Made by a program: the position numbers and the translations under genes. Shown here in pieces: positions 5,145 through 14,177 of a DNA stretch of 64,000 nt. How positions within the stretch are numbered: position 1 is the first letter of the stretch; the number at the start of each line of letters is the position of its first letter. The notes below the pieces were generated by a model that worked only from the letters and a program-made list of their open reading frames with translations, ran no database searches and was not told the origin of the DNA. This DNA comes from Labilibacter sediminis (GTDB lineage Bacteria; Bacteroidota; Bacteroidia; Bacteroidales; Marinilabiliaceae). Where the stretch lies: positions 62,001 through 126,000 of the forward strand of contig NZ_VCHY01000018.1 of NCBI RefSeq assembly GCF_005877885.1, given 5' to 3'.

Positions 5145-5198
5145 ACTAACACTTTTTTATAAAAGATGATAAGAATTTACTTTGGTTGCGTTAAGTAT

Positions 5199-5238
5199 TA
5201 ACCTTCTATCTAACAAACCATCGTTAGATAGAAGGTTA
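5199..5238. terminator. Perfect 16-bp hairpin upstream of the lipoprotein gene
   Basis: TAACCTTCTATCTAAC at 5199-5214 and its exact complement at 5223-5238 enclose an 8-nt loop. There is no long T tract after either arm. It lies about 55 bp upstream of the lipoprotein start, so it may be an operator or an RNA hairpin instead of a terminator. Confidence 0.5.
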
Positions 5239-5350
5239 TTAATATACTTTGTTGTCCGACAAAAAACGAAATTGCATCTATAAAGTTCTCAAGATTATAC
5301 AGATGCAAGACTATGCGACAAGAGGGGGTAACTAATCCGCCTTCATGTAA

Positions 5351-5743: not shown

Positions 5744-6436
5744 ATGAAGGAAACATTAGAAGCATCCTTTTCCATTGTAAACATCATCCCTACTACACTT
5801 TTTATTTTAATATTACTTTATTGGATAACCGTCATTTTCGGCGTTTTTAACGTGGATAGTTTTGATGTAGACGCTGATGCAGACGTTGATTTTGACCTGG
5901 ATACCGATGTTGATATTGACACTGATGCTGATATAGATGCCGATGCAGATACCAATGTGGATGCAGGCAGCTCTTTGATATGGCTTAACTCAGCCCTGTC
6001 GTTTTTTAACCTGGGCAAAATACCCTTGATGGTCATCCTTAGCTTTTTTGTACTTAGCTTATGGGTTATTTCCCTGTTAATGAATTACTACCTAAACAAC
6101 AACTCAATGTTGTTATCATTGGTATACCTTATCCCCAATATATTAGCCAGTGCATTTGTAGCTAAATTCTTTACTACCCCATTTGTTAAAGTCTTTGCTA
6201 TTTCTGATGAAGAATCCATGACTAACAAAAAGCTGACAGGAAAAATGTGCACTGTTACCATGGCAGCAACTCACAATAAAATGGGGCAGGCCGAAATCAT
6301 GATAGACGGATCTTCTTTTATAGTCAACGTGCTGGCTACCGAAGAACAATATAACTTACACAAAGGCGAATCGTGCCTTGTGATTGATTATATCCCGGAG
6401 AAAAAAATTTATTTAATTGAACCATATAAAAACTAA
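5744..6436 (+). CDS. Asp-rich membrane protein with C-terminal NfeD/YqiJ-like OB domain
   Basis: A 230-aa protein with a hydrophobic segment at about residues 12-35, an acidic linker at about 42-76 made of alternating Asp-x dipeptides, two further hydrophobic segments around 90-145, and a C-terminal beta-rich domain (about 163-230). The domain starts LTGKMCTVT and ends IPEKKIYLIEPY, as in NfeD/YqiJ OB-folds. NfeD-type proteins are the usual membrane partners of flotillins, and the flotillin gene follows after only 3 bp, so the two are certainly co-expressed. The Asp-x linker is unusual and could bind divalent cations. Function in the complex is unknown. Confidence 0.8.
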   Translation: MKETLEASFSIVNIIPTTLFILILLYWITVIFGVFNVDSFDVDADADVDFDLDTDVDIDTDADIDADADTNVDAGSSLIWLNSALSFFNLGKIPLMVILSFFVLSLWVISLLMNYYLNNNSMLLSLVYLIPNILASAFVAKFFTTPFVKVFAISDEESMTNKKLTGKMCTVTMAATHNKMGQAEIMIDGSSFIVNVLATEEQYNLHKGESCLVIDYIPEKKIYLIEPYKN

Positions 6437-6439
6437 AAC

Positions 6440-8548
6440 ATGTTAGAAGGAATCACGCAAATTGGATTGATTGCAATTGTTGTTATTTTCGTTGGTTTTA
6501 TCATTATTGTTGTTAAAACCTATCGCAAGGCAACACAAGGACAAGCATTAGTACGTACCGGACAGGGGGGTACTAAAGTTAGATTTGGAGGTATCTTTGT
6601 AATACCCGTTATCCATAAAATGGAAATCATGGATATCACCCTTAAAACCGTAGTTATTTCACGCTCAGGTAAAGAAGGATTAATTTGTAAGGATAACTTA
6701 AGAGCCGACATTAAAGTAAACTTTTTTGTCAGGGTAAATAAAACTTCAGAAGATGTGATTCAGGTGGCACAATCTATTGGTTGTTCCAGAGCTTCGGATA
6801 TTGAATCATTGGTTGATCTTTTTGATGCTAAATTCTCTGAAGCCTTAAAAACTGTAGGTAAGCAATTCGATTTTGTAGAATTATATAACTCTCGTGAACA
6901 GTTTAAATTAGAAATTCTGCGAACCATAGGTACCGATTTAAATGGTTACGTATTGGATGACTGTGCCATCGATTACCTGGAGCAAACTCCTATAGAAGAA
7001 TTATCTCCGGATAACATCTTGGATGTTGAGGGTATTAAAAAGATTACAAAAATCACTTCCGAACAACAAATATTATCCAACCAAATACGCAGAGATAAAG
7101 AGAAGACGGTTACTAAGCAAGATGTAGAAGCAAAGGAAACAGTACTTCAATTAGAGAAGCAGTTGGCTGAAACCGAAGAAAAACAAAAAAGAGAAATTGC
7201 CAATATTAAATCGCGCGAAGGAGCTGAAATCGCCAAGGTTGAGCAGGAACAAAAATTAATTAGCGAGAATGCTCGTCTTGCCACAGAAGAAGAAGTTCAG
7301 GTTGCAGAAGAAAACAAACAACGTCAGGTGATTGTGGCCCGTAAAAACAAAGAACGTACGGAAGCTATAGAAAACGAAAGCGTGTTAAAAGATCAGCAAA
7401 TTGAAGAAAACGAGCGTGAAAAACTGGTAAGCTTAGCTCGTTTAGAAAAAGAAAAAGCATTAGAAGCTGAGCAAAAGAAAATGCAGGAGGTAATCAGAGA
7501 GCGCATTGAAGTAGAAAAATCCGTAGTTGCTGAAGAGGAGAAAATAAAAGATACCAAAGCACAGGCAGAAGCTGAAAGAACCAAGTTAGTTGCCATTAAA
7601 GCAGCTGAGAAAGAAGCAGAAACCAATCTGGTAACTGAAATTAAAAGCGCTGAGGCTAACCGTAAGGCTGCTGAATATAAAACTGAGCAACGCATTCTGG
7701 AAGCAAAAGCCGCTCAGGAAGCTGCAGATAAAGAAGCCAATGCCACTAAAATATTAGCAGAAGCTAAAGCGGCCGAGGCTGCTGCCATAGGTATTTCTGA
7801 AGCACAAGTAATTGAGGCCAAAGCGGAGGCTAAAGAAAAAGAAGGTACGGTACAAGCGACTATCATAACAGCTACCTCTAAAGCAGAGGCTGAGGCGATT
7901 CAACAAAAAGGTATGGCAGAGGCTACTGTTACCGAAGCTAAAGCTACAGCAACCGAAAAAGAAGGAATGGCAGTTAATCGAGTGAATAGCGAAAAATTCA
8001 CGGTAGAGGCTAAAGGGATAGAAGAAAAAGCTGCTGCCATGAAAAAGCTTGACGGTGTAGGAAAAGAGCACGAAGAATTTAAGTTAAAACTGAACAAGGA
8101 TAAAGAAATTGAACTGGCAAAAATCAATATTCAAAAAGATATTACCTCAGCACAGGCCAAAGTTATCAGCGAAGCACTAAAAGCTGCCAACATCGATATT
8201 GTAGGTGGAGAAACCATGTTCTTCAACCAGATTATGGGTGCTATTTCAAATGGTAAAAGCGTTGATAAGGTTGTTGGTAACAGCGAAGTTTTAACACAAA
8301 TAAAAGATACTTTCTTCTCCTCTGAAGATGGTCAATCATTTAAAACCAACATCCAAAAATTTGTTCAGCAGTTTGGCATGTCATCCGACGACCTAAAAAA
8401 CCTGAGCTTATCTAACTTATTGTTCAAATTAAGTAACGAAGCCAGCAGCGACAGCGATAAAAACTCCATTTTTAATCTGTTAGACGTAGCAAAAACCTTA
8501 GGCGTATCAAACAAAACTGCTAAGGAAATCGGTATTGATCCGTTTTAA
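6440..8548 (+). CDS. Flotillin family SPFH/band 7 protein (YqiK-like)
   Basis: A 702-aa protein with one N-terminal membrane helix (about residues 6-27), an SPFH/band 7 domain (about 30-200), then some 380 residues of Ala/Glu/Lys-rich coiled coil (about 205-590) and a ~110-residue C-terminal tail. Flotillins assemble into membrane microdomain scaffolds facing the cytoplasm. The partner membrane protein lies 3 bp upstream and the AAA ATPase gene 205 bp downstream. It is longer than E. coli YqiK (~550 aa), mostly through its coiled coil. Cargo or client is unknown. Confidence 0.9.
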   Translation: MLEGITQIGLIAIVVIFVGFIIIVVKTYRKATQGQALVRTGQGGTKVRFGGIFVIPVIHKMEIMDITLKTVVISRSGKEGLICKDNLRADIKVNFFVRVNKTSEDVIQVAQSIGCSRASDIESLVDLFDAKFSEALKTVGKQFDFVELYNSREQFKLEILRTIGTDLNGYVLDDCAIDYLEQTPIEELSPDNILDVEGIKKITKITSEQQILSNQIRRDKEKTVTKQDVEAKETVLQLEKQLAETEEKQKREIANIKSREGAEIAKVEQEQKLISENARLATEEEVQVAEENKQRQVIVARKNKERTEAIENESVLKDQQIEENEREKLVSLARLEKEKALEAEQKKMQEVIRERIEVEKSVVAEEEKIKDTKAQAEAERTKLVAIKAAEKEAETNLVTEIKSAEANRKAAEYKTEQRILEAKAAQEAADKEANATKILAEAKAAEAAAIGISEAQVIEAKAEAKEKEGTVQATIITATSKAEAEAIQQKGMAEATVTEAKATATEKEGMAVNRVNSEKFTVEAKGIEEKAAAMKKLDGVGKEHEEFKLKLNKDKEIELAKINIQKDITSAQAKVISEALKAANIDIVGGETMFFNQIMGAISNGKSVDKVVGNSEVLTQIKDTFFSSEDGQSFKTNIQKFVQQFGMSSDDLKNLSLSNLLFKLSNEASSDSDKNSIFNLLDVAKTLGVSNKTAKEIGIDPF

Positions 8549-8753
8549 GGATTAGACACAAGACATAAGTATAAAGACAAAAGACACATACAAGGCCAAC
8601 TAGCAATAAATAGTATAGCATTTATTGCTGGCCTTATTTGTTGTTTCAATGGTGCTTATACCATCAATTCTAGTCTTTATACTTTCGTCTTTATACTTTT
8701 TGTCTACCCTCATATCTTTTGTCTCCATCAAAAACCTTTATTGAATCAACATC
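8549..8753. repeat. Intergenic spacer with nested inverted repeats
   Basis: The spacer between the flotillin and ATPase genes has outer arms rich in AAGTATAAAGACAAAAGAC and its complement (GTCTTTATACTTTCGTC and related) and an inner hairpin at 8592-8635, AAGGCCA..GCAATAAAT pairing with ATTTATTGCTGGCCTT with a 4-nt bulge. It could attenuate transcription between the two genes or set different expression levels. It also looks like a dispersed Bacteroidetes intergenic repeat. Confidence 0.5.
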
Positions 8754-11700
8754 ATGGCAAATACCACTCCTGACAATATCGAAAATAAAAACACTGAAAC
8801 CCAGCTGGAGCAAGGAACCTACGAAATCATTAGAAACAGGTTAGTCCAACACGGTAAAGATCTACAGGGTCGCTTAAACACCTTAAACGACGAACGTAAA
8901 AGTGTTTTCGGGTCCATTGAAACGACATTAATTGGTAACGAGCGTATTACTACTTCCAACAATTGTATTCCGGTAGATATGGTAACCATTGGTAATTCAT
9001 TTGTATTTGGTTATAACGTTCTTATCGGCTTAAAAAAAGAAGTTGATGTTGCTGATGTTTTTAGTGTTTATGCCTACAATGCCACCGAGCATAACTTTCA
9101 GGAAAATGCTCTTGACCTGCTCCTCTCCGGTGACTTTGTTAAAGACTTTAAAAACCTTTACAAATACTACAAGGAAACCCAATTTATCAAGTTTGCCAAA
9201 ATTGGTACTTCACTGTTTTTAGTCTTTAAAACCGGAAAGGGTAAATTCGATATTAAAACCTTTAAATTTATAGTTCAGGGGGAACAGATAGCTTACGTTG
9301 ATAACCGCAGCGATCACGAATTTGTTTTTCCCGACCAGCATGAGTTTAAATGGACACGCACCACACGTGATCAACATGTAAAAGGACAGTTCCCGCATAT
9401 CTCCATCGAAGATCAAATATTTGTGGAGACTACCGAAGGTGACCTGACCATTAAAATAGAGAACAACACAGATAGCGGATTGGGTATATATGCCGAAGAA
9501 GTGGAGCACAAAACCCAAACCCTCGATGATGCAGAGTTTTACTATTCTATCATTGACAACCTTATTGTATTAAAAATAAAACCCTATCAGGAAGAAGACT
9601 TCCGATACATCGTATACAACAAAAAAATACAGGAAGCCATTCGCATCGATTCTCTGGAAGACTCATGCGTTCTACTTCCGGATAGCCATGGTCTTATTTT
9701 TGCCAACGGTTATTATCTGCAAACAGGTGAGATGAAAATCTTTGATAACGAACTCACTGAAATGCTTTACCTTCGTCGTATTCCTTCACCCAATGGCGAA
9801 GATTACCTGTACATATTTTATAACCAAACCAACGGTGAATATGTACTACTCTCATACAACCTCATCGCTCAACAGGTAGAAACACCAATCATATGCCATG
9901 GTTATTCCTTATTCGAAAATGGAGAACTATGCTACTTTAAAACAGATGGAACACCTAAAAAACATCATGCCCTTCAAATCTGGCGCACGCCTTATTTAGA
10001 TAGTAACTATCAAAGTGAAATTGAATCAAACCAAACATCTAAACTCTATAAAATAGGCAATAAGGACATCGTTAGGGGAATGTCTGAATGTAATGAAATA
10101 CTTAAGCTTATTCAAAAGGAAGATAGCTATGCCAATTTGTATTTCGACATTCAGAAAACAGCCAATGACATACTGGATACTTATTACTGGATTGGTGATA
10201 AGGAAACAGCTAACCTTAAAGATCCACTTCAAAATATTAAAGATACTGCTGCTAATGCCATAGAAGAATACGAGAAGGTAGTTAGCATTAAAAAGAATAG
10301 TCGCGAAGAAGTGGAGAGGGTGATGCAACTGACATATGCCATTACACTCAAAATTAAAGAAACTTCTTTTGCCAACATCAATGAATATGTAACAGTTCTG
10401 GCCGACCTCAGGACTCTTCGCGGAGAAACGGTATCGCTAAAAGAATTGCGTTATGTCGACATAGAGCATATCCAGAATGAAGAAGAGAAACTCGATGGAT
10501 TTAATCAGGAAATTTCCAATAACTGCGTCAAATTCCTGTTGCAAAAAGAGGCTTTAGAACCATACTACAACAAGGTAGAAGAACTAAAAAACAGTATTCA
10601 GGAGGTTAAAAAGGTTGTAGATGCCAATAAAATTGAAGATGAGCTCAATCAAACTTCCGCAGAGTTAGAAATGCTGATTGAAATTATTAGCAATCTTAAA
10701 ATTGATGATGCCACAGAAACAACACGTATTATCGATACCATTTCTACTATTTACTCCAGCTTTAACCAAATAAACGCCGCTTTAAAACGTAAGCGTAAAG
10801 AACTCTTAAGCATTGAAGGAACCGCTGAATTTAATGCACAGATAAAACTAATAAGCCAAGGTTTAACCAACTACATAGAACTTGCCGATTCCCCTGAAAA
10901 ATGTATTGAGTTTCAAACCAAACTTATGGTACAGATTGAAGAGCTGGAAGGAAAGTTTTCGGAGTTTGATGATTTTATCGACAAGATTACCACCAAGCGC
11001 GAAGAGATATACAACTCCTTCGAATCGAAAAAAATAAGCCTGGTAGAGTCTCGAAACAAAAGAGCCAATACTCTTTTTCAATCATCAGAAAGGATATTAA
11101 AAGCCATACGAAACAGGGTATCTAAATTTAATGAGGTGAGCGAAATCAATGGTTATTACGCCTCCGACCTTATGATAGAAAAGTTGCGCAACATTGTTAG
11201 CGAACTGATAGAACTTGAAGATTCTGTTAAAGCCGACTCTATACAAAGCCAGCTAAAAACCATTAAAGAAGAAGCCATCAGGCAACTTAAAGACAAAACA
11301 GAATTGTTTGTCGATGGTAAGAACATCATTAAATTCGGAACACACCATTTTTCGGTAAACACCCAACCATGCGAACTAACCATGGTATTTAAAGATGATG
11401 ACATGTACTTTCATCTTACCGGAACAAACTTTTATGAAAAAGTAGAGAGTAAAGACTTTGTGAGTTACAAAGACCTGTGGGACCAGAGTATTCCATCCGA
11501 AAACCAGGAGGTATACCGTGCCGAGTATCTGGCCTACAAAGTGTTTGAAAAAGCTCAACAAAAACTCAATGGAAGCCTGCATACCTTAAAAGATGAAGAA
11601 GCATTAAATTACATTCGTGACTTTATGAGCCTTCGGTATAACGAAGGATACGTAAAAGGAGTACACGATATGGATGCACTCATCATTTTTAAGGAATTAC

Positions 11701-13670
11701 TCGAATTAATAAAAACAGCAGGCTTACTCAAGTACTCAACACAAGCACGTGCCTGTGCTAATTGGTTCTGGAATAAGTTTGTTTCTGAGGATGTGCGACT
11801 CAATTACCATAAACAGCTTAAAGGAGTGGGTGCATTATTACAAGTTTTCCCGGATGCGCAGGAATTCCATTATATCATTGAAGAATTAAAAGACAAGCTT
11901 AAACACTTCATTAACGAAACTGAGCTTTTCGATCCAATACACATACCGGAAGCATCCGAATATTTATTTCATGAGGTAGTGAAGGATGATGAATTTGTAG
12001 TTGATAATGAAGCGGCCCGGCTACATGAATCTTTTATGGCCTTCTTAAAGGATAAATCAGCTTTGGCTCACTACCAAAAATCTGTAGCAGAACTTCAAGA
12101 CACCCCTGTTGCTCAGTTCAAACTTATTCAAAAGTGGATTAAGGCGTATCTGGCCAACGAAAATGCGGATAATAAAGAACAATACATCAATGAAGTTTCT
12201 GTTTTATTAATGCTCAACAGCTTAAATAAGAAGAATATAATTAAAGCACAACTATACAAAAAACTTGAGCAGTTTCAAGGCACACACTCTGTTCTTGAAG
12301 AAGGTAATTATGCCTTCGATTACAACAAGTTTATTTTTAAATTAAAGGATTACGAGAAAAACACCGCACTACGCTTCAACGAATTAACGGCATTAAAAAA
12401 GGAATTAATTCAAGACTTTGAAGATAACCTTCGCCTACAAGAATTCAAACCGCGCGTACTATCATCCTTTGTTCGAAATAAACTAATAGATAAAGTTTAC
12501 CTGCCACTAATAGGCGATAACCTGGCCAAACAATTGGGTACTGCAGGTGAAGGTAAACGCACCGATTTAATGGGCATGCTGCTTCTTATATCTCCTCCGG
12601 GATATGGAAAAACAACCCTTATGGAATATATTGCCAGTCGCTTAGGCATCATCTTTATGAAGATCAACGGCCCGGCCATCGGACACAGCGTCACATCTTT
12701 AGACCCCGCAGAAGCAGGAAATGCAAGTGCTCGTGAGGAGCTAAACAAGCTAAATCTTTCCTTTGAGATGGGCGACAATGTAATGATATACCTGGATGAC
12801 ATCCAGCATTGCAACCCGGAGTTGCTTCAAAAATTCATTTCACTTTGTGATGCCCAACGAAAAATAGAAGGTGTATACAAAGGCAAAAGCAAAACCTATG
12901 ATTTTCGTGGACGAAAAGTATGTGTGGTCATGGCAGGTAACCCATATACCGAAAGTGGCGATAAATTTCAGATTCCGGACATGCTTGCCAACCGTGCCGA
13001 TATTTATAACCTGGGCGATATACTTGGAGACACTGCTGATGTTTTCAACATGAGTTACATCGAAAACTCCCTTACTTCAAATCAGGTATTGAATCAGCTG
13101 GCTGCCAAAAGCCACAACGACATTTACCCTATGCTTAAACTTGCTGAAAGTGGCGATAAAGATGGCTTGGAGTTTGAAGCCAATCATACTCCCGGGCAGA
13201 TTAACGACTATGTGAATGTCATTAAAAAGCTGTCAACAATTCGCGATGTAATCTCAAAGGTAAACCAACAATATATTTTCTCAGCAGCACAAGCTGATGA
13301 ATACCGAACAGAACCAGCTTTTAAACTCCAGGGATCGTATCGTAATATGAATAAGATAACAGAAAAAATTGTCTCTATTATGAATGAAGATGAACTGGAA
13401 ACGCTTATCATGTCGCACTACGAAGGGGAATCACAAACACTAACCTCCGGCGCTGAAGCCAATATGCTAAAGTTTAAAGAGATTGTTAATAAGATGACGG
13501 ACGAAGAGGCTCAACGCTGGGAAGATATTAAAACAACCTTTGTGAAAAACCAAAAACTAAAAGCGGGAGGAAACAACCAAACAGCACAAGTGATGGAAGG
13601 TATTGAGAAAATGACAGATAGTATCAACAATGTTTCTCATACCCTGAAAAAATGCATTTGGAATGGATAG
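8754..13670 (+). CDS. Giant DUF3686/AAA 'DNA repair ATPase'
   Basis: A 1638-aa cytosolic protein. The N-terminal part (for example TYEIIRNRLVQHGKDL, then SVFGSIETTLIGNERI and NNCIPVDMVTIGN) matches the DUF3686 family annotated as 'ATPase involved in DNA repair'. A helical coiled-coil middle (about 480-870) follows. Near the C terminus is an AAA module with Walker A SPPGYGKTT (1280-1288), Walker B IYLDDIQ (about 1345-1351) and a sensor-1-like VVMAGNP. The DNA-repair label is a family name, not shown experimentally as far as I know. The flotillin gene upstream and TerB-like gene downstream suggest it works at the membrane in a stress-response complex. Confidence 0.85.
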   Translation: MANTTPDNIENKNTETQLEQGTYEIIRNRLVQHGKDLQGRLNTLNDERKSVFGSIETTLIGNERITTSNNCIPVDMVTIGNSFVFGYNVLIGLKKEVDVADVFSVYAYNATEHNFQENALDLLLSGDFVKDFKNLYKYYKETQFIKFAKIGTSLFLVFKTGKGKFDIKTFKFIVQGEQIAYVDNRSDHEFVFPDQHEFKWTRTTRDQHVKGQFPHISIEDQIFVETTEGDLTIKIENNTDSGLGIYAEEVEHKTQTLDDAEFYYSIIDNLIVLKIKPYQEEDFRYIVYNKKIQEAIRIDSLEDSCVLLPDSHGLIFANGYYLQTGEMKIFDNELTEMLYLRRIPSPNGEDYLYIFYNQTNGEYVLLSYNLIAQQVETPIICHGYSLFENGELCYFKTDGTPKKHHALQIWRTPYLDSNYQSEIESNQTSKLYKIGNKDIVRGMSECNEILKLIQKEDSYANLYFDIQKTANDILDTYYWIGDKETANLKDPLQNIKDTAANAIEEYEKVVSIKKNSREEVERVMQLTYAITLKIKETSFANINEYVTVLADLRTLRGETVSLKELRYVDIEHIQNEEEKLDGFNQEISNNCVKFLLQKEALEPYYNKVEELKNSIQEVKKVVDANKIEDELNQTSAELEMLIEIISNLKIDDATETTRIIDTISTIYSSFNQINAALKRKRKELLSIEGTAEFNAQIKLISQGLTNYIELADSPEKCIEFQTKLMVQIEELEGKFSEFDDFIDKITTKREEIYNSFESKKISLVESRNKRANTLFQSSERILKAIRNRVSKFNEVSEINGYYASDLMIEKLRNIVSELIELEDSVKADSIQSQLKTIKEEAIRQLKDKTELFVDGKNIIKFGTHHFSVNTQPCELTMVFKDDDMYFHLTGTNFYEKVESKDFVSYKDLWDQSIPSENQEVYRAEYLAYKVFEKAQQKLNGSLHTLKDEEALNYIRDFMSLRYNEGYVKGVHDMDALIIFKELLELIKTAGLLKYSTQARACANWFWNKFVSEDVRLNYHKQLKGVGALLQVFPDAQEFHYIIEELKDKLKHFINETELFDPIHIPEASEYLFHEVVKDDEFVVDNEAARLHESFMAFLKDKSALAHYQKSVAELQDTPVAQFKLIQKWIKAYLANENADNKEQYINEVSVLLMLNSLNKKNIIKAQLYKKLEQFQGTHSVLEEGNYAFDYNKFIFKLKDYEKNTALRFNELTALKKELIQDFEDNLRLQEFKPRVLSSFVRNKLIDKVYLPLIGDNLAKQLGTAGEGKRTDLMGMLLLISPPGYGKTTLMEYIASRLGIIFMKINGPAIGHSVTSLDPAEAGNASAREELNKLNLSFEMGDNVMIYLDDIQHCNPELLQKFISLCDAQRKIEGVYKGKSKTYDFRGRKVCVVMAGNPYTESGDKFQIPDMLANRADIYNLGDILGDTADVFNMSYIENSLTSNQVLNQLAAKSHNDIYPMLKLAESGDKDGLEFEANHTPGQINDYVNVIKKLSTIRDVISKVNQQYIFSAAQADEYRTEPAFKLQGSYRNMNKITEKIVSIMNEDELETLIMSHYEGESQTLTSGAEANMLKFKEIVNKMTDEEAQRWEDIKTTFVKNQKLKAGGNNQTAQVMEGIEKMTDSINNVSHTLKKCIWNG

Positions 13671-13766
13671 AATCAATTAAAAATTTAACAATTATGAATT
13701 ACGAACTTTAAGTCACATACAACAATATTCGTAATTCTTAATTTATAACCCGTAATTCTAAAGCTT
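13671..13766. repeat. Spacer with degenerate ATTACGAATT-type inverted repeat
   Basis: The 96-bp gap contains AATTATGAATTACGAA and its near-complement ATTCGTAATTCTTAATTTAT, followed by CCCGTAATTC. Such spacers are common intergenic repeats in Bacteroidetes. No terminator T tract is visible, so read-through into the TerB-like gene is plausible. Confidence 0.4.
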
Positions 13767-14177
13767 ATGATTTCAATAAACAACTATTTCGATTCAGAGA
13801 AGGCACAGTTAGCCGTATTAATTAAAATGGCTAAGGCCGATGGACAAGTAAAAGGTTCGGAAGATATGTTTTTACGCCTGATGGCACGCAAATTAAATAT
13901 CTCCATTTCCGATTTTGAGGAGATTTATGAAAATGCCGATAAGTACACATACATCCCTCCTGCCAATCAGGAAGATCGTTTTGTGATGTTTTACATGATC
14001 ATCCAAATGATGAAAATGGATTTATCCGTTGACGTTGAAGAAATCGATTTTTGCAAAGAACTGGGCAAAAAACTGGAAATAAGCGACGAAAAAGTAGAAG
14101 CAATCATCAAAGTATCCATCCTTAAAAACAAAGAGGTAGTTGGTTATGATGAGATAAGAGAGTTATTGGTAGGGTAA
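13767..14177 (+). CDS. TerB-like (tellurite resistance family) protein
   Basis: A 136-aa all-helical protein. The segment AQLAVLIKMAKADGQVKGSEDMF fits the N-terminal helices of TerB-like domains, including the acidic/Gly turn ADGxV that in TerB contributes to metal binding, and the pattern is loosely repeated in the second half. It has no signal peptide or membrane helix. It is the fourth gene of the flotillin/DUF3686 group, 96 bp after the ATPase. TerB domains occur in systems linked to membrane stress and phage or metal response. The precise role here is inferred from context only. Confidence 0.75.
   Translation: MISINNYFDSEKAQLAVLIKMAKADGQVKGSEDMFLRLMARKLNISISDFEEIYENADKYTYIPPANQEDRFVMFYMIIQMMKMDLSVDVEEIDFCKELGKKLEISDEKVEAIIKVSILKNKEVVGYDEIRELLVG

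What the first reader, a model, noticed from the sequence alone, without database searches (positions are those of the whole stretch)
5744..14177. Four-gene flotillin / DUF3686-AAA / TerB module: candidate membrane stress system
The sequence shows four co-directional genes: an Asp-rich NfeD/YqiJ-like membrane protein, a 702-aa YqiK-like flotillin (3-bp gap), a 1638-aa DUF3686/AAA ATPase and a TerB-like protein. NfeD-flotillin pairs are known and DUF3686 is labelled 'DNA repair ATPase', but as far as I know no activity has been shown for the four-part set. A large ATPase docked on a flotillin raft through a TerB/metal-sensing adaptor is a testable model, possibly for DNA damage, membrane damage or phage stress.
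Basis: partly seen in the sequence, partly recalled or inferred. Interest (0 to 1): 0.8.

Follow-up and report, generated by a model that had tools for sequence, protein, structure and literature searches.

The report
Flotillin–ATPase arm of Psp system
Four neighbouring bacterial genes encode a membrane scaffold, a giant ATP-driven motor and a small TerB protein; most of the set is a short form of a published, untested membrane-stress operon, while the TerB partner looks like a clade-specific addition.

Summary
The four genes exist exactly as described. Three of them (YqiJ/NfeD-like 3TM protein, YqiK-type flotillin, β-propeller/coiled-coil/AAA+ ATPase = DUF3686) are not a new set: Ravi et al. 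2024 (PMC11237479, section 19) describe this triad, with and without a CesT/Tir–PspA pair, as a Psp-type operon. In nine of nine other carriers of a 395-genome phylum sample the full order XRE/CesT/PspA/YqiJ/flotillin/ATPase is intact. The window holds the abbreviated form; its genome carries CesT–PspA in a second, polyamine-type operon. Among 61 relatives all 10 ATPase carriers have PspA versus 6 of 51 non-carriers, but 12 of 35 further carriers without linked PspA have no PspA match. New here: a TerB subfamily that tracks the module (6 of 10 carriers, two unlinked; no intact copy in 51 non-carriers), and a probable deletion scar with only a TerB tail left. No defence-island enrichment seen. 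Most likely job: ATP-driven remodelling of membrane protein assemblies at a flotillin cage; the ATPase core most resembles MoxR-family NorQ/CbbQ. DNA repair is unsupported.

The parts
5744..6436 (+). YqiJ/YuaF/NfeD2-like membrane protein, 230 aa; hydrophobic segments about 19-37, 95-113, 122-140; Asp-rich segment about 41-75 between the first two
   Evidence: sub-threshold YqiJ_N; hydropathy; homology to DUF1449 protein; conserved position in 71 of 77 loci
6440..8548 (+). YqiK-type SPFH/flotillin, 702 aa, one N-terminal hydrophobic segment (7-25), long Ala/Glu-rich region
   Evidence: homologue hits Band_7 9.3e-11; present in 78 of 80 loci
8549..8753 (.). 205-bp gap with a strong hairpin (8555-8703), short parts of which recur elsewhere in the genome
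   Evidence: (z -7.4)
8754..13670 (+). 1638-aa ATPase: DUF3686 beta-propeller (about residues 54-413), helical/coiled-coil middle with DUF7902 (599-683), C-terminal MoxR-like AAA+ (about 1239-1580) with Walker A SPPGYGKT 1280-1287, Walker B YLDDIQH 1346-1352, conserved N1396 and R1414
13671..13766 (.). 96-bp gap with a modest hairpin
   Evidence: z -3.0
13767..14177 (+). TerB-domain protein, 136 aa, member of a module-associated TerB subfamily; D25/E32 and D85/E92 invariant in six module TerBs

Best explanation
The locus is the short (PspA-less) form of the YqiJ–flotillin–β-propeller-AAA+ envelope-stress operon, with an added TerB gene. Inferred mechanism: YqiJ and flotillin build a membrane-attached cage; the giant MoxR-type AAA+ ATPase is recruited to it through its β-propeller/coiled-coil part and uses ATP to assemble or take apart protein assemblies at the inner membrane. 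In this clade the clients probably include PspA polymers made from the separate CesT–PspA operon. TerB, which keeps two acidic D-x6-E pairs (recalled as the kind of metal site TerB has), would be a metal-responsive adaptor or regulator. Shown here: gene content, conservation, domain models, co-occurrence with PspA and TerB. Inferred: physical contact, client, direction of action, role of TerB.
Confidence: 0.55

Rival explanations
1. PspA-independent membrane machine: the conserved unit is only flotillin plus ATPase (plus YqiJ), acting like HflKC–FtsH or prohibitin–m-AAA, i.e. an SPFH cage that confines an AAA+ unfoldase for membrane protein quality control; PspA is a clade-specific partner.
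For: 12 of 35 genomes with an ATPase locus lacking PspA have no PspA match; flotillin is the most constant partner (78 of 80). SPFH–AAA pairing is an established theme (recalled; FtsH link mentioned in passages of PMC2636767).
Against: Strong PspA coupling in the window's phylum; no protease domain in the ATPase and no recurrent one among 36 downstream proteins (single Peptidase_S8 and Peptidase_M20 hits; 25 of 50 families shown).
Confidence: 0.25
2. Anti-phage or toxin defence system that senses envelope damage during infection.
For: PA3728-PA3732 of P. aeruginosa up in all samples infected with two phages (passage, PMC12041424); patchy distribution, 10 of 61 relatives; 12 matches in the plasmid collection.
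Against: No PADLOC model hit; flanks not enriched: 19 PADLOC families, each matched by 1 of 100 flank proteins, vs 14, each matched by 1 of 100 control proteins; no match in the phage collection. Induction by phage is expected of any Psp-type response.
Confidence: 0.1
3. DNA-repair machine, as the database label says.
For: Pfam description 'ATPase involved in DNA repair'; short RuvB_N match around Walker A, E 1.8e-4 over 45 residues; RuvB among Foldseek rows.
Against: The constant partner is a membrane flotillin; among 36 downstream proteins no repair family recurs in the 25 of 50 families listed; the AAA core ranks closest to MoxR proteins.
Confidence: 0.03
4. TerB is a passenger: a chance neighbour in a few lineages.
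For: Only 6 of 89 loci have it; not beside the module in same-genus G004 (L015), where only a weak match elsewhere was found.
Against: The adjacent TerBs of the window's family and of two Flavobacteriales MAGs, and the unlinked copy in carrier G052, are closer to each other than to the other TerB paralogues tested; unlinked copies were found only in carriers (G016, G052) and none intact in 51 non-carriers; the gene starts 0-36 bp after the ATPase in L069, L016 and L107.
Confidence: 0.2

Closest known systems
Ravi et al. 2024 group 1: CesT/Tir–PspA + band-7/flotillin + β-propeller AAA+ + YqiJ/YuaF (PMC11237479, section 19)
   Same: Same three core proteins; the 'abbreviated operon' without PspA is described there and suggested to work with PspA encoded elsewhere
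   Different: TerB is not mentioned (0 occurrences in the main text); the window's genome supplies CesT–PspA from an operon like their group 2 (polyamine, DUF350, DUF4178)
P. aeruginosa bac operon, bacA-F (PA3732-PA3729 plus PA14_16190 and PA14_16200; PMC2587700, PMC10948618)
   Same: bacA DUF2170/YjfI, bacB PspA, a 23-kDa TM protein, an SPFH protein (PA14_16180), and PA3728 listed as 'ATPase' (PMC8190622): same order. That PA3728 is DUF3686 is inferred from order, not tested here
   Different: Putative sigma-54 site and linked PspA; no TerB seen in the passages read
E. coli yqiJ–yqiK and B. subtilis yuaF–yuaG (NfeD2–SPFH2, PMC2636767)
   Same: Membrane partner plus flotillin pair
   Different: No DUF3686 ATPase: 0 of 14 control genomes, which include E. 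coli and B. subtilis (named)
MoxR-family AAA+ (NorQ, CbbQ)
   Different: Embedded in a 1638-aa protein with propeller and coiled coil; no VWA domain in the four proteins
ESCRT-III/Vps4
   Same: PspA-type filament protein plus AAA+ ATPase at a membrane (analogy, also drawn by Ravi et al.)
   Different: No MIT domain hit and a MoxR-like rather than Vps4-like best match

Membership tests
Ravi group-1 Psp operon (abbreviated form) | TM + SPFH + coiled-coil flotillin | tested here: met
   38-44% identity to three annotated flotillin/SPFH proteins, one of which hits Band_7 9.3e-11; hydrophobic segment 7-25; coiled coil judged from composition only
Ravi group-1 Psp operon (abbreviated form) | AAA+ ATPase with N-terminal β-propeller and coiled coil | tested here: met
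Ravi group-1 Psp operon (abbreviated form) | 3TM YqiJ/YuaF-like partner | tested here: met
   three hydrophobic segments, DUF1449 homologue; YqiJ_N only E 0.0066
Ravi group-1 Psp operon (full form) | linked CesT/Tir–PspA pair | tested here: not met
   absent within 8.7 kb upstream and 9.3 kb downstream in the window; the genome's one PspA is at G000:C321
Psp-type envelope stress response | induced by or protecting against envelope stress | not testable with these tools
   only reports on the look-alike P. aeruginosa operon
MoxR AAA+ family | MoxR-type AAA+ core | tested here: inconclusive
TerB | PF05099 domain over gathering score | tested here: met
   40.2 bits vs 24.4
TerB metal binding | conserved acidic ligands | tested here: inconclusive
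   D25/E32 and D85/E92 invariant in 6 module TerBs; metal role of such residues is recalled
Known anti-phage defence system | match to a PADLOC model or defence-island setting | tested here: not met
DNA repair ATPase | role in DNA repair | not testable with these tools
   label only

The most novel reading that the evidence does not exclude
A bacterial ESCRT-like machine of non-Vps4 origin: a flotillin cage confines a propeller-bearing MoxR-type AAA+ motor that remodels PspA (ESCRT-III-fold) polymers supplied in trans by a polyamine-linked operon, with a dedicated metal-sensing TerB subunit that gates the motor in some lineages.
Probability: 0.2. Interest if true: 0.8.

Novelty: new variant of a known kind. 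Interest (0 to 1): 0.45.

Why it matters
How PspA-type membrane repair is powered and reset without Vps4 is open; Ravi et al. write that it is unknown how PspA homologues without an associated AAA ATPase regulate assembly (passage). This ATPase is very large, conserved from Bacteroidota to Streptomyces, labelled 'DNA repair ATPase' without support found here, and the string 'DUF3686' occurs in no paper of the held library. The co-occurrence data turn a published guess (PspA supplied in trans) into a testable dependency in one clade and show where it fails, and they nominate a TerB subfamily as an extra part.

Tried and rejected
Defence-island idea: 100 of 707 flank proteins and 100 of 212 control proteins scanned against PADLOC at E<=1e-10: 19 vs 14 families, each matched by one protein, no enrichment. 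The listing does not say which protein matched, so the number of proteins is not known beyond that; control regions were 15 arbitrary stretches of eight genomes, only partly the same groups as the flanks.

Phage carriage: no match in the 'phages' collection. Plasmids: 12 records, several of which (4-12 Mb) look like mis-filed chromosomes. A shared sigma-54-like or other promoter pattern upstream of the triad and of the unlinked PspA operons in four genus members: none common to all was seen (simple patterns and eye). Recurrent downstream partner other than TerB: 36 downstream proteins scanned, only GyrI-like/Cass2 recurred (3 of 36); 25 of 50 matched families were shown, so a single further TerB cannot be excluded. 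Solved structures by sequence: none for the flotillin at E<=0.01; TerB best E 0.15; for the ATPase profile only stretches around Walker A of RuvB/p97-type proteins.

Universal PspA dependence: rejected. Confirming PA3728 as DUF3686 by sequence: no named P. aeruginosa genome was reached (one search failed). Foldseek TM-scores of both models to single PDB chains are low (0.10-0.25 by query length in the rows shown), so only the fold class is claimed.
Full report
What is there. The window carries four + strand genes: 5744-6436 (230 aa), 6440-8548 (702 aa), 8754-13670 (1638 aa) and 13767-14177 (136 aa), with gaps of 3, 205 and 96 bp. The nearest neighbours on both sides lie on the other strand (an unmatched 225-aa protein; a TPR protein); further out are an amino-acid permease, rhodanese, a histidine methyltransferase and malic enzyme. 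The ATPase hits DUF3686 (6.3e-185), DUF7902 and AAA; the last gene hits TerB (4.8e-10); the first only sub-threshold YqiJ_N; the flotillin nothing in Pfam. Homology to annotated proteins settles the latter two: 38% over 597 aa to the pQBR103 SPFH protein, which itself hits Band_7 (9.3e-11), 42-44% to two Streptomyces 'flotillin family' proteins, and 46% over 156 aa of the first protein to a DUF1449 protein. Four of the six homologues scanned as partners had no Pfam hit either and one only a chance-level one, so these families are poorly covered by Pfam.

Conservation. Together with 9 plasmid-collection loci (9 of 12 hits fetched), 9 relatives and the window, 99 loci were examined; 97 have an ATPase frame over 1000 residues (L017 is cut by a contig end, L081 is broken in frame). 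Using loci with enough flank, flotillin lies within 4 kb in 78 of 80 (misses L052, L058), NfeD within 4.5 kb upstream in 71 of 77, PspA in 28 of 74, CesT/YjfI in 27 of 74, TerB directly downstream in 6 of 89, PspA downstream in 2 of 89. Of 28 loci with PspA upstream, 27 have CesT/YjfI (miss L041) and 26 a divergent XRE gene (misses L031, L041); of the 46 without PspA none has either, by the profiles built here. So a regulator–CesT–PspA cassette comes or goes as a block. In the nine carriers of the phylum sample besides the window the order XRE | CesT–PspA–NfeD–flotillin–ATPase is complete in all nine. On pQBR103 the genes sit in one run with YjfI, PspA, DUF2491, DUF350, DUF1190 and a glutathionylspermidine synthase relative.

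PspA in trans. The window's genome has one PspA match, on another contig, in a run CesT–PspA–DUF4178–(no hit)–DUF350–spermine synthase–AdoMet decarboxylase–ion channel/TrkA, which fits Ravi et al.'s second group. Among 61 relatives, PspA (E<=1e-3) is in 10 of 10 DUF3686 carriers and 6 of 51 others (of the six, G002 holds a stop, G051 is below the cut-off, G047 is partial; G003, G027 and G034 are strong): Fisher 8.9e-8; with only the 8 carriers whose PspA is not beside the ATPase, 1.4e-6 (some are short-contig drafts); genus only, 4 of 4 vs 2 of 5, p 0.12. In the 395-genome phylum sample DUF3686 is in 10 and PspA in 164, including all ten; of the 15 rows marked own or same class with a PspA match, the ten with E<1e-30 are the ten DUF3686 carriers. 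Against this: of 35 genomes from the scan whose ATPase locus shows no PspA (34 with at least 6.5 kb upstream, plus L042), only 23 have PspA at E<=1e-3 and 19 over the cut-off; completeness of these 35 is not told. PspA is thus a clade-dependent, not obligatory, partner.

TerB. P0004 was sought in the same 61 genomes. Matches: four adjacent to the module (G000, G005, G008, G033), two in carriers but elsewhere in the assembly (G016 C416, 5.9e-27; G052 C346, 3.3e-8), a weak match in carrier G004 (8.8e-4, 246-aa frame, not counted), and a 37-residue piece in non-carrier G003. That is 6 of 10 carriers against 0 of 51 intact copies in non-carriers (p 3.8e-6; 2.5e-5 if the G003 piece is counted). Two Flavobacteriales MAG loci, L069 (which also has XRE–CesT–PspA) and L107, have TerB right after the ATPase. 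The adjacent TerBs are closer to each other than to the TerB paralogues tested from G000, G002, G003, G005, G006 and G007; the G052 copy ranks about level with L069. In G003 the two genes that precede the module in G005 (one of them also in G004) are present in the same order, followed at once by the TerB tail; genes after the tail do not match those after the module in G005, G004, G008 or the window (E<=1e-15). The simplest reading is that an ancestral module at this site was deleted, leaving its last 38 codons. One draft genome only. TerB therefore looks like a genuine but lineage-limited part. Ravi et al.'s main text has no 'TerB'. Of the paper search listings, one search gave one paper holding TerB, flotillin, PspA and ATPase: a tellurite study of Paenibacillus whose passages name only the terBCDE genes of E. 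coli but report PspA, LiaH and a flotillin among the proteins most raised by tellurite (PMC8453073, passages), 12 of 96 papers were listed and none of the 12 holds both TerB and flotillin.

Literature seen. Ravi et al. 2024, PMC11237479: passages and section 19 in full; it describes the triad and the abbreviated operons and suggests PspA elsewhere. PMC2587700, PMC10948618, PMC13086221, PMC8190622, PMC12041424, PMC8926400, PMC2636767, PMC10936438, PMC8453073: passages only. From these: loss of PA3731 (PspA-like) impairs biofilm, swarming and rhamnolipids, and the protein rises on osmotic shock; bacA-F are co-transcribed; deletion of paFlo3 = PA14_16180 has little effect; PA3728 is listed as 'ATPase'; PA3728-PA3732 are up in all phage-infected samples. 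Gene order suggests PA3728 is the DUF3686 protein; this is inferred. 'DUF3686' returns no paper in the held library.

Mechanism. Best reading: YqiJ and flotillin form a membrane cage (by analogy with published SPFH cages; start of abstracts), the MoxR-type motor docks on it and remodels membrane-associated assemblies, in PspA-bearing hosts probably PspA polymers; TerB adds metal-dependent control in some lineages. Steps shown: gene linkage, domain make-up, co-occurrence. Steps inferred: docking, client, direction, TerB role. Rivals are a PspA-independent membrane quality-control machine (the best rival, given), a phage-defence role (no genomic support), DNA repair (label only), and TerB as passenger.

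Verdict. The added value is the test of PspA in trans, its limits, and the TerB subfamily.

Noticed in passing
window 5196-5241: Near-perfect 19-bp inverted repeat upstream of the module; its 32-base core with the same loop occurs at three places in the genome (contigs C66, C88, C321) and folds strongly (z -8.6).
   Followed up: partly
window 8560-8698: Hairpin in the flotillin–ATPase gap whose 24-29-nt end pieces recur at 11 other places in the genome, like a small interspersed repeat.
   Followed up: partly
L174 9554-9667 (G003 C22 about 79553): TerB remnant directly after the two genes that precede the module in G005: a probable deletion scar of the whole module.
   Followed up: yes
L057, L111: PspA directly downstream of the ATPase instead of upstream, in Anaerohalosphaeraceae/Phycisphaerae MAGs.
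   Followed up: no
L012 1020-1673; L175 3-4319: Genes that begin like kinases next to the ATPase in one relative and near the unlinked TerB in another; judged by eye, not scanned.
   Followed up: no
L013 17282-19900: A large ORF near the module in G016 that begins like a Cas9 (judged by eye).
   Followed up: no
L081 8920-14241: ATPase of a Rubripirellula MAG is split over three frames; real decay or assembly error not distinguished.
   Followed up: no
L142, L143 (G046, G053): XRE–CesT–PspA (and in G046 NfeD and flotillin) lie on a different contig from the ATPase, suggesting split modules or assembly breaks.
   Followed up: no
window 5864-5968: The Asp-rich stretch of the NfeD-like protein between its first two hydrophobic segments is also visible at the start of several relatives' proteins, so it may be a functional acidic loop.
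   Followed up: no
PMC8453073 (passages): In Paenibacillus pabuli tellurite raised PspA, LiaH and a flotillin most of all: a hint that tellurite, the classical Ter stress, and Psp/flotillin responses overlap.
   Followed up: no
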